A stretch of 64,000 nt of DNA. Origin: Argyresthia goedartella (lineage: Eukaryota; Arthropoda; Insecta; Lepidoptera; Argyresthiidae). Positions 16,506-51,573 of the stretch are shown here, piece after piece. Numbering within the stretch: the stretch's first letter is position 1; each line of letters opens with the position of its first letter. The stretch is taken from contig OX463829.1 of assembly GCA_949825045.1 (NCBI GenBank), forward strand, positions 6,200,001-6,264,000. The letters run 5' to 3'. The notes under the pieces were generated by a model. The model had not been told where the DNA came from and ran no database searches. It saw nothing but the letters and a program-made list of their open reading frames with translations. The translations under genes and the position numbers were made by a program.

Positions 16506-16510
16506 CGACG

Positions 16511-22435: not shown

Positions 22436-22589
22436 GCACATCAAAAATACTGATTTTCACAGCAAAAATACTTTTTATGTTTTAAGTATTTTTGATGTTC
22501 TTACATGTTCAACCTAATACGAAGGATAAAGGGGGCTTCGATTCGCTCACCTCCTTTACCCTTCACCTAAGCTACCGCAGTATTTTGCC
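22436..22589 (+). repeat. Dispersed repeat M1, copy 4, left half (Maverick target)
   Basis: It starts with ACTGATTTTCACAGCAAAAA and runs through the M1 core to GCAGTATTTTGCC. The last six bases, TTTGCC, are the target duplication. The right half resumes at 37909. Removing the Maverick and one TTTGCC restores the M1 order seen at 12497-12525. Confidence 0.85.
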
Positions 22590-22793
22590 AGTAGGGTAAC
22601 ATTGGGGGTTCTGCATCACAAATTCGCGCCGCTCGCTTCGCTCGCTCCGCTCGGTTTGTGCTGCAAAACCCCACAATGTTATCCTACCCTGCAGGTTTTA
22701 AACGGCAACCTGTTTATTCTGAAGTGTGTCTAATTCATACTGCACCTCTTTTCTATTGACTGATGACGACCTGAGCTACAAAATCTTATTGTA
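22590..22793 (+). repeat. Maverick left terminal inverted repeat
   Basis: It pairs with 37699-37908. The first 140 bp differ at about one position (ACCCCAC against ACCCCGC). Farther in there are point changes and an indel of about 8 bp near 22757. A GC-rich patch holds three CGCTCG words in 30 bp. Confidence 0.95.
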
Positions 22794-22924
22794 TGCTATG
22801 CAGTTAACAATTAGTCTGCTTGACAGACATAAAATAATGAAAATTGTGTCCACTAAGTGATCAATAATTTTCATTTCAAGATATAAAAAATAGCAGCAAA
22901 ACCTTCGCGTTTCGAGAGATGTCT

Positions 22925-23045
22925 TTACTTGATACGTGGTACGTGGTACGTGGCACTTGTTGCGACATCTCTCTCAACACTTAGGTTGGTCTGGTATGTG
23001 GCATATGGTACTTGGCACTTGGTATGTGGTACTTGTTCCCTTGCG
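22925..23045. repeat. Imperfect short tandem repeats in Maverick left arm
   Basis: Runs of ACGTGGT and variants GGCACTTGGTATGTGGTAC repeat about ten times. The region is GT-rich and non-coding. Confidence 0.6.
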
Positions 23046-23377
23046 GTTATGTCTAAAGCTGCTTTCGGGTTGCCCAAACCCTAATCACCTCAAGAGACAA
23101 ATTTGCATGGTTGACAATGGGACATGTATAAGAGCAGTAGTAAATCGGGCCAATTTAACTAAAGCATCTCACACAGAACCAGTCTAACTGTAGTTTATCT
23201 TACACTTCTTATATACTAAAAGAATGAAAAACTTTGATAGCGCGATGTAGGACTTGATTCATTTTATACTGGAGAATTAAAGTTTTAAACCTGAATCCAT
23301 ATTATGATGACCCTTGGAACTCTGATGACAAGGTTGTGACGTATTTCATTCACACTGCATTTGTTTACTTAGAGATG

Positions 23378-23706
23378 TCGTAGCCATATCGTCGATTTGG
23401 CCATATCACAATATGGTCAGAAATGGCTTGACCATATCATGAAATGGGTTGCCATATCATGATATGACCTGTTTTAATGAAAACATGTCTTTTTAAAAGC
23501 ATTGTTATTCAGCACTGCATGATGTTTTTTTTGTGTTATACATGTCAAACTAACACGAAGACTATTCGAGGGCTTCGCTGCGCTCACTCCCTCCAGTCTT
23601 CACCTAAGCTACCGCAGTGTGTGCCCTAAAAGATTTAATCGATTTATGATATTTCACGTTTGGCCATATCGTGATATGGCCAATTCGATGATATGCCTAT
23701 ACGACA
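23378..23706. repeat. Cluster of CCATATCATGATATGG-type palindromes
   Basis: GGCCATATC, CACAATATGGTC, GACCATATCATGAAATGG, CCATATCATGATATG and GGCCATATCGTGATATGGCC (a perfect 20-bp palindrome at about 23653-23672) recur on both sides of an M1 fragment (23515-23640). Function unknown. Confidence 0.65.
23515..23640 (+). repeat. Dispersed repeat M1, copy 5 (diverged)
   Basis: It holds TACATGTCAAACTAACACGA, GGGCTTCGCTGCGCTCAC and TCACCTAAGCTACCGCAG. It is more diverged than the other copies and lies inside the Maverick. Confidence 0.6.
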
Positions 23707-23800
23707 GAGATATTCCTTATAAGTGTTCCATGTCATAATCATAACAAACTTATGCATATAAGGAGCTATCACGAATAAGGAAGGCGCTATGCGCTTTATA

Positions 23801-24118
23801 CAGGGTGTTGATTTGTAAAGTTACGCCGAGCTCAGAGGTGGTTAAATACATGATACTAAAGCAAAAATAAATTTTTTTTTTCAGTAAAAATTAAATTAAT
23901 ATTTTTTTGATTTTACAAATATTAAAAAAACATAGAAATGTCGTCCAAAAAGTGTTGCACTGGGTGGATTGAGGTTCAGGGCGCGGGGAAGAGTCTATTA
24001 GCACTCGGGCGCGGTGACTGGGGGGGGTGTATCCACACTTTTAGGTAATTTCAGGAAAATTTTCAGATGGTAAACTATCGGCTCTGAGTCGGGTGTAACT
24101 TTACAAATCAACACCCTG
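23801..24118. mobile_element. TA-flanked MITE (318 bp) inside the Maverick
   Basis: The left end CAGGGTGTTGATTTGTAAAG is matched in reverse complement at the right end, with TA on both sides (23799-23800, 24119-24120). CAGGGTGT ends and a TA duplication point to a Tc1/mariner-type non-autonomous element. It inserted after the Maverick and has no ORF. Confidence 0.85.
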
Positions 24119-24704
24119 TATGAATCCATTGCATTGAGAGCTCAACATAATTCAGTTATCCTAAACAATTGTCTCAAAAACCATGCTCTTAAAAACCCTG
24201 CTTACATTGAAATTTTCACTGCTTGTTTAGAGTGGACGATATTTTTAATGATGCCAATAAACCCATCAATGTATTTAAAGGTACATCTCATAACCATTTA
24301 AAAATTATGTTTCTAATTACACACTTGTCCTTATCCAGTACAACCATTGACCAAATTCAGTCAGCTAAGGCAGCGTTCATACAATGATTGTTAATAGTTG
24401 GAAACAAAATTGATAATAAGTACTTGAAATATACTAAGTATAAGGTTCAAAATCCTATGCCATTAGATTTTTTTAATTTTTTTTATTACACCGGTTAACA
24501 GTATTTTTTCCATTGAAAGTTCGATGTTGATGCACCTTTATAAATCAAAGCTTATAAATATTGATGCAACTAGATGAAAGCCGCTTTTCTAATACTTGCG
24601 TCGATATCTTCGAATGAGCTCGTGTTTTGTGAATTAGTGCTGCTGAAGAACTGAAGACATAAGTATGTAAGTTTGATTTTTTATCACTTATGGATCCCGC
24701 ACTT
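24119..24704. other. Maverick left arm, unassigned
   Basis: AT-rich sequence between the MITE and a SINE. No convincing ORF, but this is where an upstream exon of the 24910-25920 coding segments could lie. Confidence 0.35.
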
Positions 24705-24852
24705 GGATACCTTGTGTCATGGGAACCAGAAACAGCGATAATACAAACATGTTAATCTCTAAGACCTAGGAAGGTTTTTTTGTCCCAACGGAATTAGAAT
24801 CCGAAACCTCTAGCATGGTAGGCAGACGTACAACCGCTGCGCCACCGAGACC

Positions 24853-24890
<38 letters not shown>
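24705..24890 (-). repeat. SINE S1, copy 3 (reverse) with long poly-A tail
   Basis: The minus strand matches S1 (CGGTGGCGCAGCGGTTG and a B-box-like TTCTAATTCC). A 37-base T run at 24854-24890 abuts the tRNA-head side of the SINE, which is unusual because the tail normally follows the body. It may be part of a preceding insertion or of the polypyrimidine tract of the acceptor at 24909. Confidence 0.7.
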
Positions 24891-24909
24891 CATTCTATTA
24901 ATATTTTAG

Positions 24910-25134
24910 GTGGTCCAGCCCATTTGATTCTGACGTAGACGAGGAGATCAGGAGCGAAGTTCAGGAGAAAAAACCTGCTGCGAAGGCGAAAAAAACTTCA
25001 ACCCCTAAAGCGAAAAAAGCGGCGGCAATCCCAACACCAGCACTAACTGATGCCGGTTCTGAGTCGGATGAGGAGCCCATTCCTTGTGCTCAGCCCAAGA
25101 AACGGAAGAGAATTGCTACCTTCCCATTCCGAGG
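24910..25134 (+). pseudogene. Exon-like coding segment, acidic/basic nuclear-type protein, frame-broken
   Basis: It lies between a strong acceptor (poly-T then ATATTTTAG) and a strong donor (GTAAGC). The frame beginning at 24911 gives an acidic start (WSSPFDSDVDEEI), a Lys/Ala/Pro-rich middle (KKPAAKAKKTSTPKAKKAAA) and SESDEEP. After about 25080 the best-looking continuation, with a PKKRKR nuclear-localisation-type motif, is in another frame. Neither frame joins the next open segment (25609) without a stop, except the third frame. It may be an eroded Maverick gene or a captured host exon. I do not recognise it. Confidence 0.4.
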
Positions 25135-25312
25135 TAAGCTTTAATATTATTTTATTTAAACAACCATTTCTCATGTTTTAAACTAAATGTAGCATCTTGT
25201 TTGAATAATATTTTATGCTCGTCTATTTTAATTTTTTAATCATTATTTACTTTTATCTGTAGCACAAACATGTAAACATTCAAGATCTGATGTTTGTTTT
25301 TTATTTAGTTAT

Positions 25313-25388
25313 CCAGCCGGGATTCGAATCCGCGATCCCTCGCATGGTAGGCAGACGCACAACTTCTGCACCGCAAGCCCCGCCCCTA
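25313..25388 (-). repeat. SINE S1, head fragment (reverse)
   Basis: GCCGGGATTCGAATCCGCGA and TCGCATGGTAGGCAGACG match the reversed S1 head. It lies in the presumed intron between the two coding segments. Confidence 0.7.
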
Positions 25389-25608
25389 ATTTTATTTGTA
25401 ATTACTTTGATTAACTTTTGATTAAAGATATACCAAAAATGTTTCGTAAAAACAATTTCCTCTTATCTTAATCCAACTTAACTCACAGTTTTAAAATAAT
25501 TGCTAATAATAATTGATTGACATGCATATTTTACTAGTGAAATTACATTGACAATGTAAAATATATTTTTTTTAAATAATAGCGAATGCCTATTTCACAT
25601 CTTTACAG

Positions 25609-25920
25609 GATGAGCTAGAGCCGATTCGTGCATCAGCGCTCAAGAACTTTCTTTCACGTCGCACCGGCTCGGGGTGTTCATTCCAGTCCGATCCTTCACG
25701 TCGAGGCGAATATTATGTGGAGCTACGGGTGTACAACAGCCGTGAGTTAGAGGGAAGCAAGTTAGGAGATCGGGACAGATGTAAATTGGCTTTGATACAT
25801 ATGAAAACGAATGTAAATGGAGATGCTCCCCTATGGCATTCGATTTCAAAAGTAGTTACTGATAGTAAGGAGCAATTCAAGGGAGTAAGACCAGTCATTT
25901 ATCCTTTGAATATTATGTAA
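25609..25920 (+). CDS. Exon-like segment of an unknown protein, C-terminal 103 residues
   Basis: Open from the acceptor CATCTTTACAG (25608) to TAA at 25918-25920 in the frame starting DELEPIRASALKNF. The protein is charged, with RRTGSGCSFQSDPSRRGEYY, VELRVYNSRELEGSKLGDRD and a C-terminus VIYPLNIM. No motif is recognised. GC content and codon use are higher than in the core Maverick genes, so it may be younger cargo. It lies upstream of the polymerase in the same orientation and probably continues the segment at 24910. Confidence 0.45.
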   Translation, partial: DELEPIRASALKNFLSRRTGSGCSFQSDPSRRGEYYVELRVYNSRELEGSKLGDRDRCKLALIHMKTNVNGDAPLWHSISKVVTDSKEQFKGVRPVIYPLNIM

Positions 25921-26154
25921 TGCAAAGCTGTCGATATCCGAATATCGCAAGCGTAAGAATCAGCCTCCGTCTGTCATTTATCCTTTGTTTTTTTAAATCT
26001 TAATATTTTTAGCAACTTATTAACATAAAAATTCATGTAATCAATACAAGTCATTGTTATAATTTTTTCATCGTTCACATAATTTGATATTTTACTAATC
26101 TTTTACAACAGCAGTATTTGATTAAATAGATAATTCTCTTACCTACAGATAAAA

Positions 26155-29100
26155 ATGGTTTATTGTCAAGAATGTCAAGCATATGTCTCACGATTATCTT
26201 CTCACAAGAAAAGTAGCATTCACAAATCTAACTGTTTGATACGAACTGAGTTAAGCAATGTTAAAATAATAGCAACAGCGTTTAGAAATAGAATAATCAG
26301 TTATAGAGTCAATCCTGAAAAAGAATATCTTGTACCTGATTTTTTTTTGTCAGATAACTATTCTACCGTTAGTAATCTTATAAGCACCCTTCTAAGAAAA
26401 CATCGATCGTTAAAAGTAAACATAGAACTTTTTATTACATATAATCTACCTAAAGATAACACTCAATCTTTAAAATCATTTAACACAAAATATACCATGG
26501 TATTGCAAAGTACTGATATTTCCGTTTTATACCATGATTTATCAAACCTTTTGCTAATGAAGTGCTTAGAGTTTGAACACGCAGAGTCGGGGTGGACTAT
26601 AGAGTCAGTAAGTCATTTGGAGATAAACATTGCGAAATTTAGTCCGTTGAAAGCAGGATCGTACATACCACTTCCGAAAAGTATTCAAAACACAAAGTCT
26701 TGTCTAAATATAAAAAATAATGATGAGTACTGTTTTTTGTGGAGCATTGTAGCACATTTATATCCTGCAAAAAATAATCCCAATAGACTTTCATCTTACC
26801 CTCATTTCTCTAACTTTTTTAACACTTCAGGAATGTCATTTCCCCCCAGCTTTAAATGTATTAAATGGTTTGAAAGACATAATACGGGAGTGAGTGTCAA
26901 TATTTATGGATTAGATGAACATGGTAGTATAACAGGTCCTCTATACAAAACTTTGCGAAGACGTGTTGAGCATGTGAATTTGTTATTTATCAGTTGTAAA
27001 TCGAAAAATCATTTCTGTTTAATTAAAGATATGGGAAAGCTCTTACACAACCAACTCACGAAACACAAATCACGAATTCATCTTTGTGATGAATGCTTCA
27101 TGTACTTTAGTACAGAAGAGAAGTTAGCAAGTCATAATTGTGCAGGGATACAGACTGTTCTTCCTGAGGAAGGCAGCAAAACAGGTTTTTCAAATTATGA
27201 AAGAACACAAAGGATTCCAATAGTGATATATGGTGACTTCGAGAGTTTACTCCGCGAGTATTCAGATAAACATAAATCCACTCATGTAGAGAATGTGCAG
27301 GTACACGAAGCAACTTGTTTCGGTTATTTCATTTGTTGTAAGTCTAATCCAGAGTTAAATGATTATGTTTCCTACAGGGGTTCCAACTGTTCTCAAAAGT
27401 TTTGTGAGTCAATTTGCAAGGATTTGCTTCGTTTACATAAAATATTATCTGTACAAAGAGAAATGACTCCCTTAACAGAAGAAGAAAAATTAAGAGTGGA
27501 AAATACAACTAACTGTCATATATGTAAAAAATCATTTTCTCTCGAAGATACAAAAGTTCTAGATCATGATCACTTTACTGGGAAATTTAGAGGACCTGCA
27601 CACAATTCATGCAATTTAAATTGTAAGACTTGTCCATTCATTCCAATAATTTTCCATAACCTTTCTGGTTACGATTGTCATCTATTTATTGTAGAGCTAT
27701 CTAAAATATGTGGTCGCATTAAACTATTACCAAAAAACAAAGAAAAATATATTTCCTTTACAAAGTTTATCCCACTTGACAGACAACATACTGCTCAGCT
27801 GAAATTTGTTGATTCTTTAAATTTTTTGGATTCAAGTTTAGATAATCTCATTAAAACACTTGAAACCGAAGACTTCATTAACTTAAAGTCATTTTATGAA
27901 GATGAAAAGATGTTTAATTTAGCTCGGAGAAAAGGTGTCTTTTGCTATGACTATGTAGATTCGTGGGATAGATATAATGAGACCACATTACCAGACAGAA
28001 ACAAATTTTATAACAAACTCACTTCTGAGATTATTACCAATGATGATTATAATCATGCTATGAATGTTTGGGAAACATTTGGAATGAAAACTCTTGGAGA
28101 CTATACAGATTTTTACTTGAAATGTGATGTTTTATTACTTTCTGACGTATTTGAAAAATTTAGATTTATGAGTCTTAATCATTACAATCTAGACCCTTGT
28201 CACTATGTTTCTTCACCATCTTTAAGTTGGGATGCTATGCAGCTTTATACAGGTGTTGAGTTAGACTTAATATCAGATGTTGAAATCTATCAAATGTTTG
28301 AAAAAGGTATCAGAGGGGGTTTAGCTCAATGCTCACGACGGTATGCAAAAGCGAATAATAAATATTTATCCGATTATAAACCTAACATATCTTCAAATTA
28401 TTTAATGTATTTTGACTGTGTTAATTTATATGGATATGTGATGATGTCAAAATTACCCACCGGAAATTTTAGATTTTTAAAAGAAAATGAATTGATCAAT
28501 TTTAATGTCATGACGATAAGTTCTCATAGTGATACAGGTTTCATTCTTGAAGTAGATTTACATTATCCTTCTGAAATTCATGACAATCATGCAGATCTAC
28601 CGTTTGCTGCAGAACAATTAAAGGTTCCATTTCCCCTTGGTAAAAATATAAAATTAGTATCCAATTTATTTGATAAATATAAGTATGTGATTCATTATGT
28701 ACATTTACAAAAATGCTTAGAACATGGCTTACAATTACTTAAAATTCATAGAGTTCTTTCATTTGATCAAAGAGCATTTTTAGAACCTTATATAACTCTC
28801 AATACAACTCTAAGACAAAACGCAAAGTCTGAATTCGAAAAAAATTTTTTCAAGAAACAAAATAACTCAATTTTTGGTAAGACTATAGAGAATAAGAGAA
28901 AGCAGGTAGATGTGAAACTGATAAACATTTGGTCTGATTCATCAAATAAAACAAACAAATATATTGGTGCTGAAAAATATATAAGCGCTCCTAATTTTAA
29001 AAATTTGGCCATTATTTCAAAAGATTTGGTAGTCATACAGATGGAGCCCTCAAAAGTCATTCTGGATAAACCAATTTATGTAGGTTTTAGTATATTAGAT

Positions 29101-29658
29101 CTAGCAAAAACACATTTATATAATTTTCATTACTCAGTAATGAAAAAAATTTATGACAAGAACATCCAACTATGTTACACAGATACAGATAGCCTTCTGT
29201 ATCTTATAAATACAGAGGATATTTATGAAGACATGAAAAAACATATTAAATATTTTGATACTAGTAATTTTAAGTGTGACAATGTGTACAATATGCCATG
29301 TTTAAATAAACAAATTCCAGGATATTTTAAAGATGAGATGAGTGGGGATGTTATTTCAGAATTTGTGGGCTTAAGAGCCAAGTTGTATTGTATAGAGACA
29401 AATAAAAACTGTTCAGTTAAGAAAGCCAAGGGTGTGAAAAAATGTGTTGTAAAAAAATTGGATATTAATAAATATAAGGATGCTTTATTTAAAAACATAG
29501 AATTTAAAGATTCAATGTATTTTATACGATCTAAAAATCACTGTGTCTATACACAAAAAGTAAATAAGGTTGTTTTAAATGCAAATGATGATAAAAGACA
29601 GATATTAAATGGAAGTTTTAAAACATTGCCCTGGGGACATTATTCCACTATATTTTAA
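26155..29658 (+). CDS. PolB: Protein-primed family B DNA polymerase with embedded HNH-like module
   Basis: A single 1167-residue ORF. It would replicate the linear element, probably from a terminal protein. An N-terminal CxxC...HxxxxxHxxxC finger comes first (residues 4-27) and a second finger (HLCDECFMYF...HNC) near 310. The exonuclease motifs are Exo I (YGDFESL, about 360), Exo II (FHNLSGYDCHLF, about 501) and Exo III (YLKCDVLLLSDVF, about 655). Between Exo I and II lies a CxxC...LDHDH...RGPAHNSCN block (about 453-492) like endonuclease VII/HNH nucleases. The polymerase motifs are A (FDCVNLYG, about 755), B (NNSIFGKT, about 905) and C (YTDTDS, about 1008). All catalytic acids are present. 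A splice acceptor (TTACCTACAG) ends 6 bases before the ATG, so a spliced leader is possible. AATAAA lies at 29692. Confidence 0.97.
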   Translation: MVYCQECQAYVSRLSSHKKSSIHKSNCLIRTELSNVKIIATAFRNRIISYRVNPEKEYLVPDFFLSDNYSTVSNLISTLLRKHRSLKVNIELFITYNLPKDNTQSLKSFNTKYTMVLQSTDISVLYHDLSNLLLMKCLEFEHAESGWTIESVSHLEINIAKFSPLKAGSYIPLPKSIQNTKSCLNIKNNDEYCFLWSIVAHLYPAKNNPNRLSSYPHFSNFFNTSGMSFPPSFKCIKWFERHNTGVSVNIYGLDEHGSITGPLYKTLRRRVEHVNLLFISCKSKNHFCLIKDMGKLLHNQLTKHKSRIHLCDECFMYFSTEEKLASHNCAGIQTVLPEEGSKTGFSNYERTQRIPIVIYGDFESLLREYSDKHKSTHVENVQVHEATCFGYFICCKSNPELNDYVSYRGSNCSQKFCESICKDLLRLHKILSVQREMTPLTEEEKLRVENTTNCHICKKSFSLEDTKVLDHDHFTGKFRGPAHNSCNLNCKTCPFIPIIFHNLSGYDCHLFIVELSKICGRIKLLPKNKEKYISFTKFIPLDRQHTAQLKFVDSLNFLDSSLDNLIKTLETEDFINLKSFYEDEKMFNLARRKGVFCYDYVDSWDRYNETTLPDRNKFYNKLTSEIITNDDYNHAMNVWETFGMKTLGDYTDFYLKCDVLLLSDVFEKFRFMSLNHYNLDPCHYVSSPSLSWDAMQLYTGVELDLISDVEIYQMFEKGIRGGLAQCSRRYAKANNKYLSDYKPNISSNYLMYFDCVNLYGYVMMSKLPTGNFRFLKENELINFNVMTISSHSDTGFILEVDLHYPSEIHDNHADLPFAAEQLKVPFPLGKNIKLVSNLFDKYKYVIHYVHLQKCLEHGLQLLKIHRVLSFDQRAFLEPYITLNTTLRQNAKSEFEKNFFKKQNNSIFGKTIENKRKQVDVKLINIWSDSSNKTNKYIGAEKYISAPNFKNLAIISKDLVVIQMEPSKVILDKPIYVGFSILDLAKTHLYNFHYSVMKKIYDKNIQLCYTDTDSLLYLINTEDIYEDMKKHIKYFDTSNFKCDNVYNMPCLNKQIPGYFKDEMSGDVISEFVGLRAKLYCIETNKNCSVKKAKGVKKCVVKKLDINKYKDALFKNIEFKDSMYFIRSKNHCVYTQKVNKVVLNANDDKRQILNGSFKTLPWGHYSTIF

Positions 29659-29691
29659 GAAATAACCTGCTGTTGTAAATTAATTAAAAAA

Positions 29692-29697
29692 AATAAA
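29692..29697 (+). terminator. Polyadenylation signal after the polymerase
   Basis: AATAAA 34 bases past the stop codon, just ahead of a hairpin. Confidence 0.55.
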
Positions 29698-29700
29698 CAA

Positions 29701-29760
29701 AATTTAACCATGTTATATCTAAAGTGGAATCATCACTTTAGATATAATGTTGTTAAATTT
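29701..29760. repeat. Hairpin after the polymerase gene
   Basis: AATTTAACCATGTTATATCT continues through AAAGTG, a 7-base loop, and the reverse complement with one mismatched patch. Arms of about 26 bases. Confidence 0.8.
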
Positions 29761-29916
29761 TGCGGTTTAACTTTGTAAAAATAACCAAATGAGGTTTTAT
29801 GTATTTGTAGTTAATATAATTTGCTCCATGTACTGTTGATATTTACTCGCTTATTCCAATAAAATAATATTGTTTAACCTTATTGTTTGTATCATTTATT
29901 GAAACCCTCCAGTTCC

Positions 29917-30034
29917 TTAACAATGTAGAGCTTGTCTTATCTCAAATGACGCACCACCTCATTTCTCATACAAGCAGATGGAGTTTAAAGTGGAGAGGCA
30001 TGTCATTTGAGCTGAGACAAGCTCTACTTTGTAA
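29917..30034. repeat. Second inverted repeat in the 3' intergenic region
   Basis: Left arm GTAGAGCTTGTCTTATCTCA (then AATGAC) and right arm GTCATTTGAGCTGAGACAAG (then CTCTAC) pair over 26 bases with two mismatches around a loop of about 60 bases. It lies between the convergent polymerase and the minus-strand gene. Confidence 0.75.
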
Positions 30035-30228
30035 ATTTTTATCTACTGAAGTTTTTATCTATCCTAGTTAAAATCTCATTAAATAAATTAAACACAAACT
30101 TTTAAATATCAATTTATTCACATTTACATTTACATGGGATATATTTATTAGATAAAATAGTATGAAGTCATCGTATACTAGAATAAGGTGAGATAGCTAA
30201 CATAAATAACAAAAACTACTTATTGATA

Positions 30229-30627
30229 TTAATTATCACTATTATCACATATTTTTTTTGAAATTTTTCTAATTAAATTCTCAGTCTCTTCGAGTACATC
30301 CTCATATAAATTTTTTACCACATATTGCACAACAACATTTCTATTCTTATTTCGTTCGTCTAGTGCCTCGATTTCAATTTTTATAACACATGATCCCGAA
30401 GCATTTTCTTTTTTAATAAAGGAAGCATCATTCAGTTTCCTTTTTTTAGGGGCAATGGTTTTTTCCTTCTTCTTGGATTCCAACCATGCTATCCTCCTAT
30501 TTTCAGCTTTATCTAGCCAAGCGTTTACATCTTGACCTTCACCCCCAACACCGAACTCATCAATCAAACTAGGGTCCACAGCTGGGGGGCTAACATTGTA
30601 GTAGTTGAAGACAGAGTTCTCCGACAT
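30229..30627 (-). CDS. Maverick minus-strand protein of unknown function, 132 residues
   Basis: I chose the ATG at 30627 because the sequence just 5' of it is a good splice acceptor (TTGTTTCAG) and the codons beyond it look non-coding. The protein is hydrophilic. It has an acidic, Pro-rich N-terminus (VSPPAVDPSLIDEFGVG), then NAWLDKAENRRIAWLESKKK, a basic patch (APKKRKLND) suggesting nuclear entry, and a Glu/Lys-rich C-terminus with a possible amphipathic helix. It is the only gene on this strand in the core of the element, convergent with the polymerase and divergent from the ATPase. A DNA-binding or replication role is only a guess. I do not recognise the family. Confidence 0.7.
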   Translation of the reverse strand: MSENSVFNYYNVSPPAVDPSLIDEFGVGGEGQDVNAWLDKAENRRIAWLESKKKEKTIAPKKRKLNDASFIKKENASGSCVIKIEIEALDERNKNRNVVVQYVVKNLYEDVLEETENLIRKISKKICDNSDN

Positions 30628-30629
30628 TT

Positions 30630-30723
30630 CTGAAACAACATTCACATGTTTTTTAAAACTTACTGCAGCAATGATTTGAAGTATAATATTATTTTTAAAC
30701 AGACATGTAAAATAGGTACTCAC
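30630..30723 (-). other. Predicted 94-bp intron in the 5' UTR of the minus-strand gene
   Basis: On the minus strand the donor GTGAGTACC begins at 30723 and the acceptor TTGTTTCAG ends at 30630, two bases before the ATG. The length is typical of small insect introns. Confidence 0.6.
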
Positions 30724-30813
30724 TTGTAAATAATAAAGTTGCTTGAATAGTTTATTAGATCCTTGAGACTGGAAGTAATCCCTCAGAGCTCTAAGACACT
30801 TAGATGTGCACAC

Positions 30814-31179
30814 TGATTAGGTTAAATATACACTGATATAAAATAAACTGCTTGTGATGAGTATAGACTGAGCGAGGGGAAGGGAGGGTTGTTTAGGTTT
30901 TGTTAATATAAAAGGAGATCTGCTGACGTAAGTAAAGATGAAACTTAAAACGGATACATTTTCTAGGAATTTCAGAAACTAATCAAACTTTTATAAGTAT
31001 TCAATAACATAATAATATACATACATACATACATACATACATATGCTTGAACCTTTTCACCTAAGAGGGGTAGGCATAGACTAAAGATCTTCATTTGCTA
31101 TGATCCTGGTATACTATATGAAATCTATTCTTATGCAAACAATAAATACACATGCTATTTAATGTATTAATAGCTCATT
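30814..31179. promoter_or_regulatory. Divergent intergenic region with (CATA)n microsatellite
   Basis: The 366 bases between the minus-strand gene and the ATPase probably hold both promoters. ATAAAATAAA and TAATATAAAAGGAG are TATA-like on opposite sides. A (CATA)n tract runs from about 31017 to 31042. Confidence 0.45.
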
Positions 31180-31884
31180 ATGTCATCAGAAACTAAAATG
31201 AAGTTAATCAAACAACCCGTTTCTTTAAATATTTGTGAAATAAAAGTTGATAAAAATACTAACACTTTTAGACATAGCATTCTTTTACCAAATTCCATTC
31301 GCTGCATAATATGCGGGCCATCGAATTGTGGAAAAACAAATGTAATGATAAGTTTGTTATTAAATGAAAATGGGTTAAAATTTCATAACATTTATCTTTA
31401 TTCGAAAACAGCTTTCCAGCCAAAATATCTATTTTTAGAGGAAGTGATAAGATACATTCCAGAAATTAAATTGTTCCTGTTCCAAGATGAAAAAAATGTT
31501 ATTCCACCCCACGATGCTTTGACAAAATCAATATTTATTTTTGATGATGTAGTCTGTGAAAATCAGAGTGATATACGTAATTATTTTTCCATGGGTCGAC
31601 ATAAAAAAATTGATTGTTTTTATTTATCGCAAACTTACTCAAAAATACCTAAGCAGTTGATTCGAGATAATGCTAATTTATTAGTTATCTTCAAACAAGA
31701 TGATGTAAATTTAAAACATATTTATGATGAGCATGTCAATTCTGATATGAGTTGGCATAGATTTAAATCAATGGCTACTGATATATGGAAAGAAAAATAC
31801 GCATGTTTAATAATTAACAAAGATTGTGAGCTAGATAAGGGAAGGTACAGGAAATATTTTGATATATTTATTAAATTAGAATAA
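31180..31884 (+). CDS. FtsK/HerA-type genome-packaging ATPase
   Basis: 234 residues, the usual size for Polinton and virophage packaging ATPases. Walker A is GPSNCGKTN (residues 46-54), Walker B is SIFIFDDVV (about 118-126), and a conserved polar motif follows (FYLSQTYSKIPKQLIRDNAN). In related viruses this A32-like motor pumps DNA into preformed capsids. The gene starts at an ATG with nothing credible upstream in frame. It heads the plus-strand block of structural genes. The Walker A Lys and Walker B acids are all present. Confidence 0.95.
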   Translation: MSSETKMKLIKQPVSLNICEIKVDKNTNTFRHSILLPNSIRCIICGPSNCGKTNVMISLLLNENGLKFHNIYLYSKTAFQPKYLFLEEVIRYIPEIKLFLFQDEKNVIPPHDALTKSIFIFDDVVCENQSDIRNYFSMGRHKKIDCFYLSQTYSKIPKQLIRDNANLLVIFKQDDVNLKHIYDEHVNSDMSWHRFKSMATDIWKEKYACLIINKDCELDKGRYRKYFDIFIKLE

Positions 31885-31976
31885 AAGGATTATATATTAC
31901 TGTCATTAGAAAAAAAATACCACTATAGTGCAAGCTATAAGAACGAACAGAAGTGTACAATTATTAGTACTTTAAA

Positions 31977-32798
31977 ATGGATGTAGATATAAAAAAACAA
32001 ATAATAAAATCAGTAAGGAATATTAAAAATAAATTAAAAATACTGAAAGAGGAAGAAGATATTTCAGAACGTAAACAACGTAAGATATTAAAACCCATTA
32101 CTGATCCGTTAGAGTCGATAGTCTCGATACATAAAAACGAAGAGAATAAAAACAATCAAATGGAAGCTTCCAATGAGAATAATGATGATTACTTTAGCTC
32201 ATGTACAAGTGACACTAGTATGCATACTGAAGATGAATTAGATGATAGTATTTTCCATGATGAAAGGAATAAAAACATTACTTATGGTATAAGAAACGAA
32301 GGAGGCAAAGTACTAATAGGAAACGTTCCCATCGTAATAAAGAAAACTGAAGATAGTTCAGTGTTTAGTATTAAAGATAAAAGCTATGTCATTACTCCAG
32401 GTCTATCAGAGTTGTTGTTTGAAAATAAACCTAAGATAGATTTGATCACAGAACAAGATAGGTTACTATATAAAGATATTTTAATTGCTACTAATGCACA
32501 TAGAAGAGGATTTATTCCATCAGGACAAATACAAGGTAATTCAGGAATAAAATATTCAAAAATAATTAAGCCTTTATTTCTTGAAACTGAAACAAAAAAA
32601 GTACAACAAGGTGGTAGTTTACCAATATTAAAAAAATATAAATCAAATACTGATTTAGTATACTGGGACAATCCTAATGAACTTATTGATAGGTTAAAAC
32701 TTTTAGTTGCCTCAAAGAGTGCAGGAAATACCAATCATGATAATGAAATAATTTCTATAATAGAGGAATTAAAAGAAGCAGGTATTATTAGAGAATAA
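31977..32798 (+). CDS. Maverick conserved orphan protein, 273 residues
   Basis: The N-terminal third is charged and low-complexity (Lys-rich, then NNDDYFSSCTSDTSMHTEDE). The conserved part begins near residue 100 and includes YVITPGLSELLFEN, LLYKDILIATNAHRRG, a DLVYWDNPNELIDRLKLLVAS block and the Glu-rich terminus IISIIEELKEAGIIRE. I recall this C-terminal block as typical of arthropod Mavericks (possibly the domain called DUF8207), of unknown function. Its place between the packaging ATPase and integrase suggests a virion or assembly role, but nothing in the sequence shows an enzyme. Confidence 0.8.
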   Translation: MDVDIKKQIIKSVRNIKNKLKILKEEEDISERKQRKILKPITDPLESIVSIHKNEENKNNQMEASNENNDDYFSSCTSDTSMHTEDELDDSIFHDERNKNITYGIRNEGGKVLIGNVPIVIKKTEDSSVFSIKDKSYVITPGLSELLFENKPKIDLITEQDRLLYKDILIATNAHRRGFIPSGQIQGNSGIKYSKIIKPLFLETETKKVQQGGSLPILKKYKSNTDLVYWDNPNELIDRLKLLVASKSAGNTNHDNEIISIIEELKEAGIIRE

Positions 32799-32848
32799 AT
32801 AGAGCGTAAACTTTTTCATTAAACTAGTTTATTACTGACGGGCTAGCG

Positions 32849-33139
32849 ATGAACATCGATAAGTTTGGACATCATGTATTTAAACGACAGAAAATGGATA
32901 GTCACTCAGATTATCTGATTTGTAGTATGACTGATGGATCTTTAAATAAGCTCCTTAAAAATATTGTAAATCCAGTAGATGCTGGAGATTGTGTGAACAA
33001 ACAATATGTTGATAAGAATATAGAGAGCTTAGAAATTAAACTCAAATCAATAAACCAAAATCTGGCACAAATTGGATCAGAAATCAACAGTATCAAACAA
33101 AGTATAGAGTCAGTGAAACAGAAAATTAAAAAAAAATGA
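32849..33139 (+). CDS. Small fibre-like coiled-coil protein, 96 residues
   Basis: The N-terminus is basic (NIDKFGHHVFKRQK). The middle has NPVDAGDCVNKQYVD, strikingly like the DAVNKxYVD linker that precedes the trimeric shaft of phage tail fibres. The C-terminal half (LEIKLKSINQNLAQIGSEIN onward) has regular heptad hydrophobics ending in a Lys run, a predicted coiled coil. I infer a trimeric spike or fibre stalk; no receptor-binding head is present. The stop codon overlaps the integrase start (ATGA at 33136-33139). Confidence 0.75.
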   Translation: MNIDKFGHHVFKRQKMDSHSDYLICSMTDGSLNKLLKNIVNPVDAGDCVNKQYVDKNIESLEIKLKSINQNLAQIGSEINSIKQSIESVKQKIKKK

Positions 33140-34074
33140 GTAAAGAAATTGTAGTGAAAGAAATACATAAGCAAGCAAGAAAAAATTTTCCAAGAAGACA
33201 TGTTGTGATGAAAGACATTGATGATTTATGGCAAGCTGATCTAATCGACATGCAATCTATTTCTAGAGAAAATTCTAATTTCAAATACATATTGGCTGTT
33301 ATTGATGTCTTTTCAAAGTATGCTTGGGTATATCCTTTAAAACAAAAGAATATGGAACAAACATTTAAAGCATTCCAACATTTATTTAGTAAAAATCGTA
33401 TTCCTAAAAATTTGCAAACTGATTTAGGAACTGAATTTTACAACAAGAAACTTAAAACATTGTTCAATCATTATAATATAAATCATTACTCAACATATTC
33501 TACTAAGAAAGCTTCTGTAGTAGAAAGATTTATTAGAACCTTTAAAGGTATTATGTATAGATATTTTAGTTTAAAAGGAAACTATGTTTGGTTTAGTCAT
33601 GATATTCTTTCAAAATTAATAGAAATGTATAATGGCAGAATGCATAGAACAATAGGTTTGAAACCCAATCAAGTAAATGCAAGTCATAAAGAACAGATAT
33701 TGCAAAAATATAAAAATAATATACGTTTAGATAAAAGGTTCATACAAAATAAAACTATACTTAAGTTTGGAGATTATGTGCGTATAAGTAAGTATAAAGG
33801 AACTTTTGAAAAAGGGTATACACCAAATTGGTCGACAGAAATATTTAAAATTATAAAAATCCAGAACACAGACCCTGTCACTTATCTCCTAGAAGATGCT
33901 AAAAAAAATCCTATATTAGGATCGTTCTATATTCAAGAATTACAAAAAACTAGACATCCTGATATTTATCTTGTTGAAAAAGTCATAAAAAAGAATGGAA
34001 ATAAGCTATTCGTAAAATGGTTAGGTTTGCCTTCTAATGAAAACTGTTGGATAGATAAATCAAAAGTTTTATAA
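33136..34074 (+). CDS. INT: Retroviral-type integrase with C-terminal chromodomain
   Basis: 312 residues. An RNase H-fold DDE core carries the acids in QADLIDM (about 35), LQTDLGTEF (about 98) and ASVVERF (about 131). The spacing between the second and third acids is about 33 residues, close to the DD35E norm. NINHYSTYST and HRTIGLKPNQV are hallmarks of Maverick integrases. The C-terminus (VEKVIKKNGNKLFVKWLGLP then NENCWI) is a chromodomain, which may steer insertion to certain chromatin. It inserts the element with 6-bp target duplications, as seen here. The ATG overlaps the upstream stop by 4 bases. Confidence 0.96.
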   Translation: MSKEIVVKEIHKQARKNFPRRHVVMKDIDDLWQADLIDMQSISRENSNFKYILAVIDVFSKYAWVYPLKQKNMEQTFKAFQHLFSKNRIPKNLQTDLGTEFYNKKLKTLFNHYNINHYSTYSTKKASVVERFIRTFKGIMYRYFSLKGNYVWFSHDILSKLIEMYNGRMHRTIGLKPNQVNASHKEQILQKYKNNIRLDKRFIQNKTILKFGDYVRISKYKGTFEKGYTPNWSTEIFKIIKIQNTDPVTYLLEDAKKNPILGSFYIQELQKTRHPDIYLVEKVIKKNGNKLFVKWLGLPSNENCWIDKSKVL

Positions 34075-34179
34075 GCAAAATATACAAGTTACATTCTCAT
34101 TCTGATAATACCTCTTCGAAAAGAAACATCTTTTCATACAATTTTTATAAATAGTATTTTACAATTCGTTTAGATTACA

Positions 34180-34665
34180 ATGGTGATGCAAAAATCAAAA
34201 ACAAATCAAAAAAAATGTATTAATAAAAATGACAAAAATAATATCAAAAAAGGCACTGGAATGAAAAAAACTTTTAAAAATATAGTTTCAATTACAAAAA
34301 AGCATATAAAAAAATTTAAACCTCAATGCAAAAAGGCAGCTATCGAACTCGCCATGGCTGTTGTTAAAGAATTGGGTTCAGATTCAGATGAGTCTGTGAT
34401 TACCCCGCGTGTGATACCTATCCCAAAAGTTGGAGGATTCTTGCCATTGATACCGATATTTGCTGGACTGTCTGCTGCTGGTGGTTTGGCTGGAGGGGCA
34501 GCTGGCATTGCTAAAGCAGTTAATGCTATTAAATGCGCTAAGGAACGCTTGAAAGAATTAAAACGACATAACAAGAAAATGGAAACACTGTGTATAGGAA
34601 AAGGATTATGTCTCAAAGAGCGTGGTGATGGTTTGGGAATTTATGTAAATAATAAAAAAAACTAA
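34180..34665 (+). CDS. pX-like hydrophobic/basic virion protein, 161 residues
   Basis: The N-terminal 65 residues are Lys-rich. After an acidic linker (ELGSDSDESVI) comes a Pro-bounded hydrophobic, Gly/Ala-rich stretch (PLIPIFAGLSAAGGLAGG), then a Lys-rich amphipathic helix and a Cys/Gly tail. This layout matches the adenovirus pX/pVI-like proteins reported in adintoviruses and Mavericks, thought to bind DNA or disrupt membranes; that role is inferred. The last codons are AAA AAA AAC TAA, a canonical slippery heptamer ending at the stop. The protease frame follows directly in the -1 frame. Confidence 0.8.
   Translation: MVMQKSKTNQKKCINKNDKNNIKKGTGMKKTFKNIVSITKKHIKKFKPQCKKAAIELAMAVVKELGSDSDESVITPRVIPIPKVGGFLPLIPIFAGLSAAGGLAGGAAGIAKAVNAIKCAKERLKELKRHNKKMETLCIGKGLCLKERGDGLGIYVNNKKN
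34656..34662 (+). promoter_or_regulatory. Candidate -1 ribosomal frameshift site (A AAA AAC)
   Basis: The heptamer is in the proper register: pX-frame codons AAA, AAA, AAC, then TAA. Slipping back one base continues CTA AAT CAT straight into the protease frame, whose last upstream stop is at 34653-34655. I see no strong pseudoknot downstream by eye. The run of eight A bases could also support polymerase slippage or be an indel error. Confidence 0.55.
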
Positions 34666-35033
34666 ATCATAGGCTACCCAAGAGAGCGCTTACTAATATA
34701 GATTTACTTAAATATGGTCAAAACATTCCATTTTTCAGAGGAGTGTTTATGAGGGATGATTTACCTCAGCATCCATTAAAAAAGGAATGTGCTATTATGA
34801 ATCTTGACAATTCTGAGAATGCTGGAACTCATTGGGTAGCCTATGCAAAATTAGATAATTATGTAGAGTATTATGATAGTTATGGTAATTTAAAGCCACC
34901 AGAAGAATTAATCAAATACATAGGACCAAATATATTTTATAATTATGATAACGATCAGAAACGTAACACATACAAATGTGGTCATTTATGTTTAAAGTTT
35001 TTAAATGCCTTTTGGGATCTAAATAAATACTGA
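34662..35033 (+). CDS. PRO: Adenain-like cysteine protease (capsid maturation)
   Basis: The frame from 34662 to TGA 35031-35033 encodes about 123 residues. It includes the conserved N-terminal block (LTNIDLLKYGQ... FFRGVFM), the catalytic His in GTHWVAY, the acid in YYDSYG and the nucleophile in YKCGHLCLKFL. Family members cleave capsid precursor proteins. The first in-frame ATG (34749) lies inside the conserved block, and no ATG precedes the block. Translation therefore needs a -1 frameshift from the pX-like ORF, a non-AUG start, splicing, or the start codon has been lost. All three catalytic residues remain. Confidence 0.88.
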   Translation, partial: LNHRLPKRALTNIDLLKYGQNIPFFRGVFMRDDLPQHPLKKECAIMNLDNSENAGTHWVAYAKLDNYVEYYDSYGNLKPPEELIKYIGPNIFYNYDNDQKRNTYKCGHLCLKFLNAFWDLNKY

Positions 35034-35062
35034 GTACTTTACGTTTGAGTTCAGTTGTTGCA

Positions 35063-35749
35063 ATGTCTGTGACTCTAACAATCGTTGGTAATAAATCTAT
35101 TCTCCAATCTGAATTTACATCTCCTTTGAGTTTAGATGGTAATTATGAGTGTGGTTTATTATTTTTTTCCACATTCAATTCAATTCCTAACATACATGAA
35201 AGCAATAACGTATTTGCATATGGGAATAATGATGTGATAAAAATTCCAAATGGCATTTATGATTTATCTGCTTTAAATGAATATATAAAATCGAAAATGG
35301 AGAATTGTAACATTATGATTCATCCAAATAACAATACTTTAAAATGTTCTTTATTTTGCACTAAACCAATTGATTTTCGCGTGAAAAATAGTATCGGTGC
35401 AATGCTTGGATTCTCGAGTACGATTTTGGAAGCGAATAAATGGCATGATTCAACTCATCCAGTGAACATTATACCAGCGTCTGTGATACGAGTCGAATGT
35501 GATCTAATACAGGGCTCTTTTACAAATGGTTCACCTACACATATAATACATGAATTTGTGCTTAATATTCCATCAGGATATCAAGTTATTGAAGTACCAA
35601 AAAACGTTATTTATTTCCCAATAAAAAATAAATACATTTCATCAGTAACATTAAAAATTTTGGATTTAGAGGGAAACCTAATTAATTTTAACAACGAAAA
35701 AATTCAACTGCGTCTTCATCTAAGGAAAAGAAATGATAGTCTTCAATGA
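35063..35749 (+). CDS. Penton-like minor capsid protein (single jelly roll)
   Basis: 228 residues from the ATG at 35063; an in-frame TTG 18 bases upstream is less likely as a start. The N-terminal FTSPLSLDGNYECGLLFFST with FNSIPNI is a signature of the penton-like proteins of Mavericks and adintoviruses. Alternating beta-strand and loop character continues through YQVIEVPKNVIYFPIKNKYI. Five copies would plug each capsid vertex. It starts 30 bases after the protease stop and its last 17 bases overlap the next small ORF. Confidence 0.88.
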   Translation: MSVTLTIVGNKSILQSEFTSPLSLDGNYECGLLFFSTFNSIPNIHESNNVFAYGNNDVIKIPNGIYDLSALNEYIKSKMENCNIMIHPNNNTLKCSLFCTKPIDFRVKNSIGAMLGFSSTILEANKWHDSTHPVNIIPASVIRVECDLIQGSFTNGSPTHIIHEFVLNIPSGYQVIEVPKNVIYFPIKNKYISSVTLKILDLEGNLINFNNEKIQLRLHLRKRNDSLQ

Positions 35750-35894
35750 TAATCATGATGTCTATAAAATAAACAAAAATAATAAATCTAAAGCCATTAT
35801 CAAGAGCAACGTGAAACAAACCACACGTAAAAAGTTAAAAATAATTACAAAAAGTAATAAGGAATTTCTTCAAACTTTGGGGTTTAAAATATGA
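35733..35894 (+). CDS. 53-residue ORF between penton and major capsid genes
   Basis: ATG at 35733, stop TGA at 35892-35894. It overlaps the penton ORF end by 17 bases and shares ATGA with the capsid start (35891-35894). The product is basic with a C-terminus NKEFLQTLGFKI. I recall a similar short ORF ending FLxxLGxK ahead of the hexon-like gene in other Mavericks, which argues it is real. Function unknown; the length rules out an enzyme. Confidence 0.65.
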   Translation: MIVFNDNHDVYKINKNNKSKAIIKSNVKQTTRKKLKIITKSNKEFLQTLGFKI

Positions 35895-37102
35895 GTATTC
35901 TAAAAATATCAGATTATCCGCAGTTCGATAATTCTATCGAAAGTTATGAAACGCATACCTACAATCCCTACAATAATAGCTTTAATGAAAATGATGAAAT
36001 AAGAATACCAATTCATCAGCAAGATATCTACTTACTACCATCATCAAGTGCGATATACATCGAGGGAAAATTTTGTGTGCAGGCTCGAGATCTGGCTGGA
36101 GTTATCAAAAAAAAAAAAGTTAATCTAACTAATAATGCAATTTCCTTTCTATTTCAAGACATTAGATATGAAATGAATGGTGTAGAAATAGATCGTGTAC
36201 GAAATGTTGGAATAACAACAACTATGAAATCTTTAGTATCTATGAGTAGTGGAGAAAATAAAGTAGCAGCTATATGGGGTTGGAACATAGACGGATTTCA
36301 TGATCAAGATGGTAGTTTTTACGTCTTACTACCATTAAATAAATTATTAGGCTTTGCAGAAGATTATAGAAAAATAATAATAAATTGTAAACATGAACTA
36401 ATTCTCAATAGAACTAGTACAAGTTTAAATAGTGTAGTTACTGACAAAGATGACTCTGTTACAGTAAGTTTACAAAAAGTGCAATGGCGTATGCCTCATA
36501 TCAAGGTATCTGACCAGCAAAAGCTTACTTTAATAAAACACTTAGAGAAAGACAAACCTATACAAATCGCATACAGAAATTGGGATCTATATGAATATCC
36601 ATTATTACCTAAATCTACCAAGCATACATGGTCTGTTAAAACAACTTCACAATTAGAGAAACCACGTTATGTTATATTTGGATTACAAACAAATAGAAAA
36701 AATAATAATGTTAAAGACAGTGCCATTTTCGATCATTGTAATTTGAAAAATGTTACTTTATTCTTAAATTCTTACTATTATCCATACGATGCTCTTAATT
36801 TGAAATTTGATGAAAACAAGTACAATATATTATACGATATGTATGCTAGATTTCGTCAGTCGTTCTATAATCTTCCTGTAGACCCGTTGATTGATCACCT
36901 AACATTTAAAACTAAAGCTCCGTTGTATGTAATTGATTGTTCGCGGCAAAACGAAAATTTAAAAACAGGACCTGTTGATGTACGTTTAGAAATTGAATGT
37001 GAAAAGGATATTCCGGATAACACAAGCGCATATTGCTTAATAATAAACGATCATCTGGTAGAGTACAGACCTTTAAGTAATATAGTACGAAAAATATCAT
37101 GA
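35891..37102 (+). CDS. MCP: Hexon-like major capsid protein (double jelly roll)
   Basis: 403 residues. It starts MSILKISDYPQFDNSIESYE and continues into alternating beta-strand segments. Family-typical motifs include ISFLFQDIRYEMNGVEID near residue 85, a WGWNIDGFHDQDG loop, and NVTLFLNSYYYPYDALNLKF near 290. Two jelly-roll halves and this length match Polinton and adintovirus capsid proteins, which form the icosahedral shell. The frame is intact with no stop. The start overlaps the small ORF upstream and the stop overlaps the next gene (ATGA, 37099-37102). Confidence 0.93.
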   Translation: MSILKISDYPQFDNSIESYETHTYNPYNNSFNENDEIRIPIHQQDIYLLPSSSAIYIEGKFCVQARDLAGVIKKKKVNLTNNAISFLFQDIRYEMNGVEIDRVRNVGITTTMKSLVSMSSGENKVAAIWGWNIDGFHDQDGSFYVLLPLNKLLGFAEDYRKIIINCKHELILNRTSTSLNSVVTDKDDSVTVSLQKVQWRMPHIKVSDQQKLTLIKHLEKDKPIQIAYRNWDLYEYPLLPKSTKHTWSVKTTSQLEKPRYVIFGLQTNRKNNNVKDSAIFDHCNLKNVTLFLNSYYYPYDALNLKFDENKYNILYDMYARFRQSFYNLPVDPLIDHLTFKTKAPLYVIDCSRQNENLKTGPVDVRLEIECEKDIPDNTSAYCLIINDHLVEYRPLSNIVRKIS

Positions 37103-37581
37103 AATCATCAGCTATTGTAGATGTACAAGGATTCAGAAGAGAAAATAATGAATTTATTATTAAAGAAATTGCTATCATTTGTGGTGATCAAGTTCAAGTT
37201 TTATTAATTCTTCCACCTTTTTCATTTCACCACCTTACATACACAGAAAAGATGCAAATCAGATGGATAGAACGAAATAGAAAAATTTTCTGGAATGATG
37301 GCTTCATTACCTATGACAATTTTTTAATGAACACGCAGCCATTCTTGGTTGACAAAACAATTTATTGTAAAGGGGTAGAAAAAGCGACTTGGATTAAGAA
37401 TATATTTAATCATGATGATGTTATAAATTTAGAATACGTTAAATGTCCTAGTTTGTTAAGTTTGCATAAAGAATATAGATTTTGTAATGATATTTTAAAT
37501 TGTATGTATCATCCTTCATTTTGTGCACTAAAAAATGTTACATGTTTAAAAAAATGGTGTACTTTTTTAAAAATAATATAA
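37099..37581 (+). CDS. Maverick 3'-terminal orphan, 160 residues
   Basis: It starts inside the capsid stop (ATGA). It begins AIVDVQGFRRENNEFIIKEI, followed by LPPFSFHHLTYTEK, a Trp-containing block (IRWIERNRKIFWNDG), VINLEYVKCPSLL and a Cys/His-rich end (CNDILNCMYHPSFCALKNV). I recall similar proteins in arthropod and cnidarian Mavericks. The opening beta-strand with an acidic residue followed by FIIKEIAI hints at an RNase H-like/DnaQ-like fold, but the usual DxE pair is not present, so any nuclease call would be speculative. It is the last gene before the right TIR. Confidence 0.75.
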   Translation: MKSSAIVDVQGFRRENNEFIIKEIAIICGDQVQVLLILPPFSFHHLTYTEKMQIRWIERNRKIFWNDGFITYDNFLMNTQPFLVDKTIYCKGVEKATWIKNIFNHDDVINLEYVKCPSLLSLHKEYRFCNDILNCMYHPSFCALKNVTCLKKWCTFLKII

Positions 37582-37698
37582 ACCATCGTTGAAATATCTT
37601 TTTTTTATTTTTCAAATACCTTATTTCCTTTTGTAATTTATAAGAAATATATACGCATAGCGTAGGCGGCGTACCCGTCCTATCAGATAAAAAAAAAC

Positions 37699-37908
37699 AG
37701 TAAGATTCTGTAGCTCAGATCGTCATCAGTCAACATAAGCAATTGAAAAGAGCTGCAGTACGAATCAGACACACTTCAGAATAAACAGGTTGCCGTTTAA
37801 AACCTGCAGGGTAGGATAACATTGCGGGGTTTTGCAGCACAAACCGAGCGGAGCGAGCGAAGCGAGCGGCGCGAATTTGTGATGCAGAACCCCCAATGTT
37901 ACCCTACT
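37699..37908 (-). repeat. Maverick right terminal inverted repeat
   Basis: Reverse complement of 22590-22793. The inner limit is near the A-rich run at 37689-37697, after which the two arms diverge. Confidence 0.95.
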
Positions 37909-37990
37909 TTTGCCCTGATATTTGCTGTGAAAATCAGTATATTTGCTGTGCAAATCTGTATTATTGCTGAGCAGTTTAATATTTCCCAAA
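37909..37990 (+). repeat. Dispersed repeat M1, copy 4, right half
   Basis: It begins with the second TTTGCC of the target duplication and continues CTGATATTTGCTGTGAAAA, the 3' end of M1, closing the element interrupted at 22589. Confidence 0.8.
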
Positions 37991-51494: not shown

Positions 51495-51573
51495 TAGTAC
51501 ATTACCACGGAGGAAGAAAGGACCAGAGACAAAGGTTCATAGAACCACGCCTTCGTAGGTAACCTACTGCATA

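What the first reader, a model, noticed from the sequence alone, without database searches (positions are those of the whole stretch)
22590..37908. Structurally complete Maverick/Polinton with capsid, protease, ATPase, integrase and polymerase genes
Both ends, the 6-bp TTTGCC duplication and all core ORFs except the protease start are intact. Near-perfect TIRs and open frames point to a recent insertion that could still produce particles or mobilise. It is nested in an older repeat, giving an exact empty site.
Basis: partly seen in the sequence, partly recalled or inferred. Interest (0 to 1): 0.9.

Follow-up and report, generated by a model that had tools for sequence, protein, structure and literature searches.

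The report
Nearly intact Maverick/Polinton virus-like transposon
A genome of unidentified, probably animal, origin carries a 15-kb virus-like mobile element whose capsid, packaging, integrase and DNA-copying genes still look readable; it is a good new example of a known kind, with an unexplained way of starting its protease and a block of host-like DNA inside one end.

Summary
22590-37908 is a Polinton/Maverick: terminal inverted repeats, a 6-bp TTTGCC duplication, two uninterrupted copies of the flanking repeat as empty sites, and open frames for a PolB-type polymerase, A32-type ATPase, rve integrase, adenain-like protease and double-jelly-roll capsid protein (Pfam E 2e-118). Additions: (1) the outer 98 nt of each end is itself a strong hairpin; (2) 22.8-26.1 kb has no recognisable gene, host-like composition and at least four host-type short repeats; (3) the protease frame has no AUG before its 32nd residue and opens in the -1 frame inside an A-run of the form A_AAA_AAC at the end of the preceding gene. 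That could be a programmed frameshift, a damaged junction or an assembly error; no downstream RNA structure supports the first. The open frames favour a recent arrival and suggest that most of the 4% mismatch between the end repeats predates insertion. Activity, other copies and host could not be tested: the own-genome search did not complete in 11 tries and the protein database was off. New member of a known kind.

The parts
22584..22589 (.). target-site duplication TTTGCC, left copy
   Evidence: once in each of the two uninterrupted M1 copies
22590..22792 (+). left terminal inverted repeat; outer 98 nt fold as a hairpin
22793..26134 (.). left arm: no recognisable gene, host-like 3-mer composition
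   Evidence: 18 of 18 stop-to-stop frames of 50 aa or more without a Pfam match above cut-off
23376..23706 (.). palindromic repeat (inverted arms) around an M1-like core 23526-23618, inside the left arm
23799..24120 (.). MITE-like repeat: inverted arms, TA at both edges
24696..24849 (-). tRNA-like SINE-type repeat, also near 16.5 and 21.5 kb (75% and 72%)
25263..25375 (-). second SINE-type repeat, 74% to the one at 16.5 kb
26155..29658 (+). PolB-type DNA polymerase, 1167 aa, with Endonuclease_7 (HNH-like) patch between ExoI- and ExoII-like motifs
   Evidence: polymerase motifs read by eye, no polymerase family match
30229..30627 (-). accessory ORF on the opposite strand, 132 aa from its first ATG; unknown
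   Evidence: only sub-cut-off matches, best E 0.0049
31180..31884 (+). A32-type genome-packaging ATPase, 234 aa; GPSNCGKT and IFIFDD
31977..32798 (+). ORF of 273 aa, no match above cut-off; probably a conserved Polinton protein (recalled)
32849..33139 (+). ORF of 96 aa, coiled-coil-like C-terminus, stop overlaps the integrase ATG (ATGA)
33136..34074 (+). retrovirus-like integrase, 312 aa, D35-D96-E130, C-terminal chromodomain-like patch below cut-off
34180..34665 (+). basic/hydrophobic core-like protein, 161 aa (role inferred); ends on A_AAA_AAC_TAA
34656..35033 (+). adenain-like cysteine protease frame, H59 D74 Q101 C108, first Met at residue 32
35063..35749 (+). candidate penton (minor capsid), 228 aa, by position only
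35891..37102 (+). major capsid protein, 403 aa, double jelly roll over the whole 316-position model
   Evidence: PF21738, E 2.1e-118
37099..37581 (+). ORF of 160 aa, ATG overlaps the capsid stop (ATGA); unknown
37697..37908 (-). right terminal inverted repeat; outer 98 nt fold as a hairpin
37909..37914 (.). target-site duplication TTTGCC, right copy

Best explanation
An integrated Polinton (Maverick; polintovirus/adintovirus-like provirus). Its integrase joined a linear double-stranded genome to staggered cuts in an older repeat, leaving a 6-bp duplication (the duplication is shown; the act is inferred). By analogy with its family, PolB copies the linear genome from a protein primer at the terminal repeats, the capsid and candidate penton form an icosahedral shell, the ATPase packages DNA and the protease matures particles (inferred). 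The coding block 26.1-37.6 kb is probably functional or only recently silenced; the left arm is host-like DNA with host-type short repeats, gained either in this copy or in its lineage (inferred). As it stands the protease is not read from an ordinary AUG ahead of its conserved part; the -1 overlap at the A-run is where either a natural bypass or damage lies (inferred).
For: TIRs, TSD, empty sites; capsid, ATPase and integrase families above cut-off; PolB motifs ExoI GDFES, ExoII HNLSGYD, ExoIII YLKCDVLLLSDVF, DCVNLYG, NNSIFGKT, YTDTDS in order (motif names recalled); protease residues H59, D74, Q101, C108 (catalytic roles recalled); gene set as described for Polintons (PMC4028283, PMC11071308 passages, PMC8097293). 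Composition and repeats of the left arm. Terminus AGTAGG is one base from the (AGT)2 motif of vertebrate Mavericks.
Against: No DNA-polymerase family matched PolB in Pfam, PHROGs or NCBIfam; the Peptidase_C5 match is below its cut-off. No relative of the capsid, PolB or integrase came from the viral collection or of the capsid from phages; those scans need exact 8-residue words, so they are weak negatives. The one prokaryote hit is 41 residues at 40%. The penton call rests on position; its model is useless (pLDDT 33). No expression or copy data.
Confidence: 0.88

Rival explanations
1. Decaying fossil: core genes happen to be open, but the element is dead because the protease junction is broken, the integrase lacks its N-terminal domain and the left arm has been overrun by host repeats.
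For: First Met of the protease frame only at residue 32; no H2C2 pattern in the integrase frame; four or more host-type repeats in the left arm; inner TIR divergence.
Against: No stop in PolB, ATPase, integrase or capsid; P of none is about 1e-4 for eleven frames at 2% divergence. No match to the rest of the window within PolB or 31180-37696; four of four repeats in the left arm by chance is 0.0025, although one further 61-bp match lies in the gap before the ATPase.
Confidence: 0.35
2. The left arm is captured or pre-existing host DNA that the element now carries as cargo, so copies elsewhere share it (compatible with the best explanation).
For: 3-mer composition groups with host stretches: -0.048 against -0.121 to -0.015 for 13 host stretches and +0.074 to +0.104 for four body stretches; no Pfam match above cut-off in 18 of 18 frames of 50 aa or more.
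Against: Repeats may equally have inserted one by one after integration, and they contribute to the composition; host and body stretches were part of their own reference profiles, two body stretches overlap.
Confidence: 0.4
3. The protease is expressed by programmed -1 ribosomal frameshifting on A_AAA_AAC at 34656-34662, giving a core-protein/protease fusion as in retroviral Gag-Pro.
For: Heptamer in the right phase, directly before the stop, in the ten-base overlap of the two frames; the protease-like residues start before the first Met. Slippery sites have been proposed for adintovirus pentons and a similar relation for hexon-adenain fusions (PMC11071296, passages).
Against: No stimulatory RNA structure downstream (z 0.37); phase-correct slippery heptamers are common here, 55 of 3016 codon positions; such runs are hot spots for mutation and assembly error.
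Confidence: 0.28

Closest known systems
Polintons / Mavericks (Polintoviricetes)
   Same: 6-bp duplication, long TIRs, PolB-type polymerase, rve integrase, A32-type ATPase, adenain-like protease, double-jelly-roll capsid, size 15.3 kb
   Different: 98-nt hairpin in each terminus, not described in what I saw of the searches; protease frame without an early AUG; gene-free host-like left arm
Adintoviruses (family also named Eupolintoviridae)
   Same: PolB, integrase with C-terminal chromodomain-like patch, hexon, protease, ATPase, as in PMC11071296 (passages); insect examples of 13.3-14.6 kb (PMC8363768, passages)
   Different: Alpha/beta assignment, hexon similarity and OTU domain could not be tested without reference sequences
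Vertebrate intact Mavericks (134 elements, PMC8097293)
   Same: similar criteria of intactness: intronless core genes, TIRs, 6-bp TSD
   Different: core genes here lie on one strand; vertebrate elements mostly have two facing modules, Xenopus tropicalis excepted
Bidnaviridae
   Same: Polinton-type PolB and terminal repeats
   Different: parvovirus-like capsid; their repeats do not form hairpins according to PMC4061559 (passages)

Membership tests
Polinton/Maverick | 6-bp target-site duplication | tested here: met
   TTTGCC on both sides, once in each of two empty copies
Polinton/Maverick | long terminal inverted repeats | tested here: met
   203 and 212 nt, 92%
Polinton/Maverick | protein-primed PolB | tested here: inconclusive
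   ordered motifs by eye, but no polymerase family match
Polinton/Maverick | rve integrase | tested here: met
   PF00665 E 8.3e-12, above cut-off; D35-D96-E130
Polinton/Maverick | packaging ATPase | tested here: met
   PF04665 E 1.1e-6, above cut-off
Polinton/Maverick | adenain-like protease | tested here: inconclusive
   PF00770 E 0.0042, below cut-off; H, D, Q, C present; no early AUG
Polinton/Maverick | double-jelly-roll major capsid protein | tested here: met
   PF21738 E 2.1e-118, full model
Polinton/Maverick | single-jelly-roll penton | tested here: inconclusive
   228-aa ORF just before the capsid gene; no family match; model pLDDT 33
Adintovirus | integrase with C-terminal chromodomain | tested here: inconclusive
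   PF00385 at residues 280-309, E 0.0016, below cut-off
Adintovirus | hexon recognisable by BLASTp against adintovirus hexons | not testable with these tools
   protein database off
Adintovirus | PolB with N-terminal OTU-like domain | not testable with these tools
   no homologues to build a profile or model from

The most novel reading that the evidence does not exclude
A live animal polintovirus whose protease is made only as a -1 frameshift fusion to a core protein (a Gag-Pro-like arrangement in a double-stranded DNA virus) and whose linear genome ends in parvovirus-like terminal hairpins.
Probability: 0.15. Interest if true: 0.6.

Novelty: new member of a known kind. Interest (0 to 1): 0.36.

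Why it matters
Whether animal Mavericks make particles is open; PMC8097293 states that their particles have not been observed (abstract). A copy with the hallmark genes open and clean empty sites is a sound object for transcript, small-RNA and particle surveys, and the protease junction and the hairpin ends give two specific points to check in other copies. It does not by itself show activity.

Tried and rejected
Structure models of the candidate penton and of ORF 37099-37581 from single sequences failed (pLDDT 33 and 37), so no fold search was made. Relatives: capsid, PolB, integrase and a 54-aa PolB piece in the viral collection, a degenerate PolB motif there, the capsid in prokaryote genomes (one weak 41-residue hit, L001, judged chance) and in phages: nothing usable. 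PDB sequence search gave nothing for the capsid and one hit at E 0.5 for PolB. Rfam: 0 matches in 20-40 kb. Around three repeats of the left arm, direct repeats of 8 bp or more were sought as insertion marks: none for the two SINE-type ones, only two 8-bp candidates for the M1-like one. The ATGA overlaps (33136, 37099) were noted but not tested as reinitiation. Codon statistics separate sense from other frames only weakly, and some antisense or left-arm frames score as high as genes; they do not prove the small ORFs.

Fold-back energy: of 393 random 121-nt stretches of the window one, at 38874, folded at least as well as the left TIR; it contains a perfect 28-bp inverted repeat.
Full report
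Check of the observation. The terminal inverted repeats are real: 22590-22792 pairs with the complement of 37697-37908, 92.0% over 212 columns, with 8 mismatches and one 9-nt gap. The outer 118 nt differ at one base, position 84. The 6 bases on each side are TTTGCC; of lengths 3 to 14 only 6 matched. The flanking repeat (M1) occurs at 12.4 and 16.9 kb, 92% and 94% identical to the left flank. Both copies run through the junction of the joined flanks with a single TTTGCC. To the right their match is short: 19 and 18 of the first 25 bases. More diverged copies at 43.7 kb and, reversed, at 22.0 kb match the right flank further (80-86% over pieces of 37 to 50 bases) but lack the TTTGCC word. So this is one insertion into an older repeat.

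Genes. Pfam at or above its curated cut-off: capsid PF21738 (E 2.1e-118, model positions 1-316 of 316), integrase core PF00665 (8.3e-12), packaging ATPase PF04665 (1.1e-6), and Endonuclease_7 PF02945 (4e-7) inside the 1167-aa polymerase frame. Below cut-off: chromodomain in the integrase (0.0016) and Peptidase_C5 in the protease frame (0.0042). The polymerase itself matched no polymerase family in Pfam, PHROGs or NCBIfam; I call it PolB from the ordered motifs of exonuclease and polymerase read (motif names recalled). The integrase has D35, D96 and E130, and no H2C2 pattern was found in its frame. The ATPase has GPSNCGKT and IFIFDD. The protease frame has H59, D74, Q101 and C108 (assignment to the adenain catalytic set is recalled). 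Frames 31977-32798, 34180-34665, 35063-35749, 37099-37581 and the opposite-strand 30229-30627 have no Pfam or NCBIfam match above cut-off and only weak PHROGs matches (E 0.011 or worse). By recall only, several of these resemble unnamed proteins common in arthropod Polintons. Two gene borders are ATGA overlaps, 33136 and 37099.

Protease start. The frame opens at 34656 and has its first Met at residue 32, after residues that look like the start of such proteases (recalled). It overlaps the end of the preceding frame by ten bases, where the sequence is A_AAA_AAC followed by the stop of the preceding frame. This is the form of a -1 slippery site. It is not strong evidence: phase-correct slippery heptamers stand at 55 of 3016 codon positions in nine frames, and the 97 nt from 34664 fold no better than shuffles (z 0.37; 120 of 200 at least as good). 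A published survey proposes slippery sites for some adintovirus pentons and a similar relation for hexon-adenain fusions (PMC11071296, passages seen). The search for Polinton with ribosomal frameshifting returned one paper, whose passage concerns a tombus-like virus; the wider search listed ten of 21 papers, none of which I opened for this point.

Termini. Each outer 98 nt folds into one long hairpin, -29 kcal/mol with DNA parameters (for 121 nt), z -6.05 and -5.09, 0 of 200 shuffles as good at either end. The single base that differs between the ends lies in a bulge. Of 393 random stretches one was as stable. Searches for Polinton with 'terminal hairpin' (5 papers), Polinton with 'palindromic' and 'terminal inverted repeat' (18) and Mavericks with hairpin, inverted repeats and capsid (6) showed no title or abstract start about such ends. 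Apart from passages of PMC4061559, which says bidnavirus repeats do not form hairpins, I opened none of these for the point, so hairpin ends of Polintons may be known. A role in replication is inference.

Left arm. 22793-26134 has no Pfam match above cut-off in 18 of 18 stop-to-stop frames of 50 aa or more that overlap it outside the TIR; two gave weak matches (E 0.0096 and 0.054). Its 3-mer composition sides with the host: distance to host minus distance to body -0.048, against -0.121 to -0.015 in 13 host stretches and +0.074 to +0.104 in four body stretches, two of which overlap; the stretches were part of their own references, the left arm was not. It carries a palindromic repeat with an M1-like core, a MITE-like repeat with TA edges, and two SINE-type repeats shared with 16.5 and 21.5 kb. 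The palindromic arms and the MITE-like repeat have no second copy in the window; that they are host-type is judged from their form. Four of four in the left arm by chance has probability 0.0025; one other short match, 31054-31114 to 11.5 kb, lies in a non-coding gap and was not in that count. PolB and 31180-37696 show no match elsewhere in the window. Either repeats inserted where they did no harm while the coding part was selected, or the arm is carried host DNA.

Age. If the TIRs were identical at insertion, 8 mismatches in 203 mean about 2% per arm. Then 9.5 stops are expected in eleven frames of 9,984 nt, P of none 1e-4. The four genes with family or motif support alone give 311 of the 473 units, about 6 stops (summed). 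Frames chosen because they are open bias this. At 0.25% and 0.5% divergence P of no stop is 0.31 and 0.09; with an assumed indel rate of 15% of substitutions P of no indel is 0.024 and 0.0006. So the copy is probably young or its genes were selected until lately, and most of the TIR difference probably existed before insertion.

What it is. A Polinton by the features tested, near the adintoviruses by gene content. PMC8097293 reports 134 intact elements in 17 vertebrate species by similar criteria (passages; section 7); PMC4028283 found full-length capsid genes in 46 of 72 Polintons (parts 1 and 2 of 4). An intact member is therefore not new. Host species, copy number, expression and place within Polintons stay open, since the own-genome search did not complete in 11 tries and the protein database was off.

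Noticed in passing
51047-54595 and 58563-62138: Direct duplication with spacing about 7.5 kb, 96-99% identical over five blocks of 300 nt, each copy with a mariner-like transposase frame (51752-52783 and 59166-60311).
   Followed up: partly
45927-50251: LINE-type retrotransposon with two long open frames: PHD-finger ORF1 (470 aa) and endonuclease-reverse transcriptase ORF2 (977 aa).
   Followed up: partly
16510-16583: ARAGORN calls a tRNA-Gly here; it lies at the head of the SINE-type repeat family and is probably not a tRNA gene.
   Followed up: no
38922-38978: Perfect 28-bp inverted repeat with one base between the arms, containing GGTTCGAATCC-like sequence.
   Followed up: no
29698-29762: 29-bp inverted repeat (90%) just after the PolB stop, between PolB and the convergent opposite-strand ORF; possible 3' end signal.
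   Followed up: no
22500-22589 and 22590-22690: Both the target repeat and the element's terminal hairpin contain a GCTTCGCT-type stretch; may be chance or a target preference.
   Followed up: no
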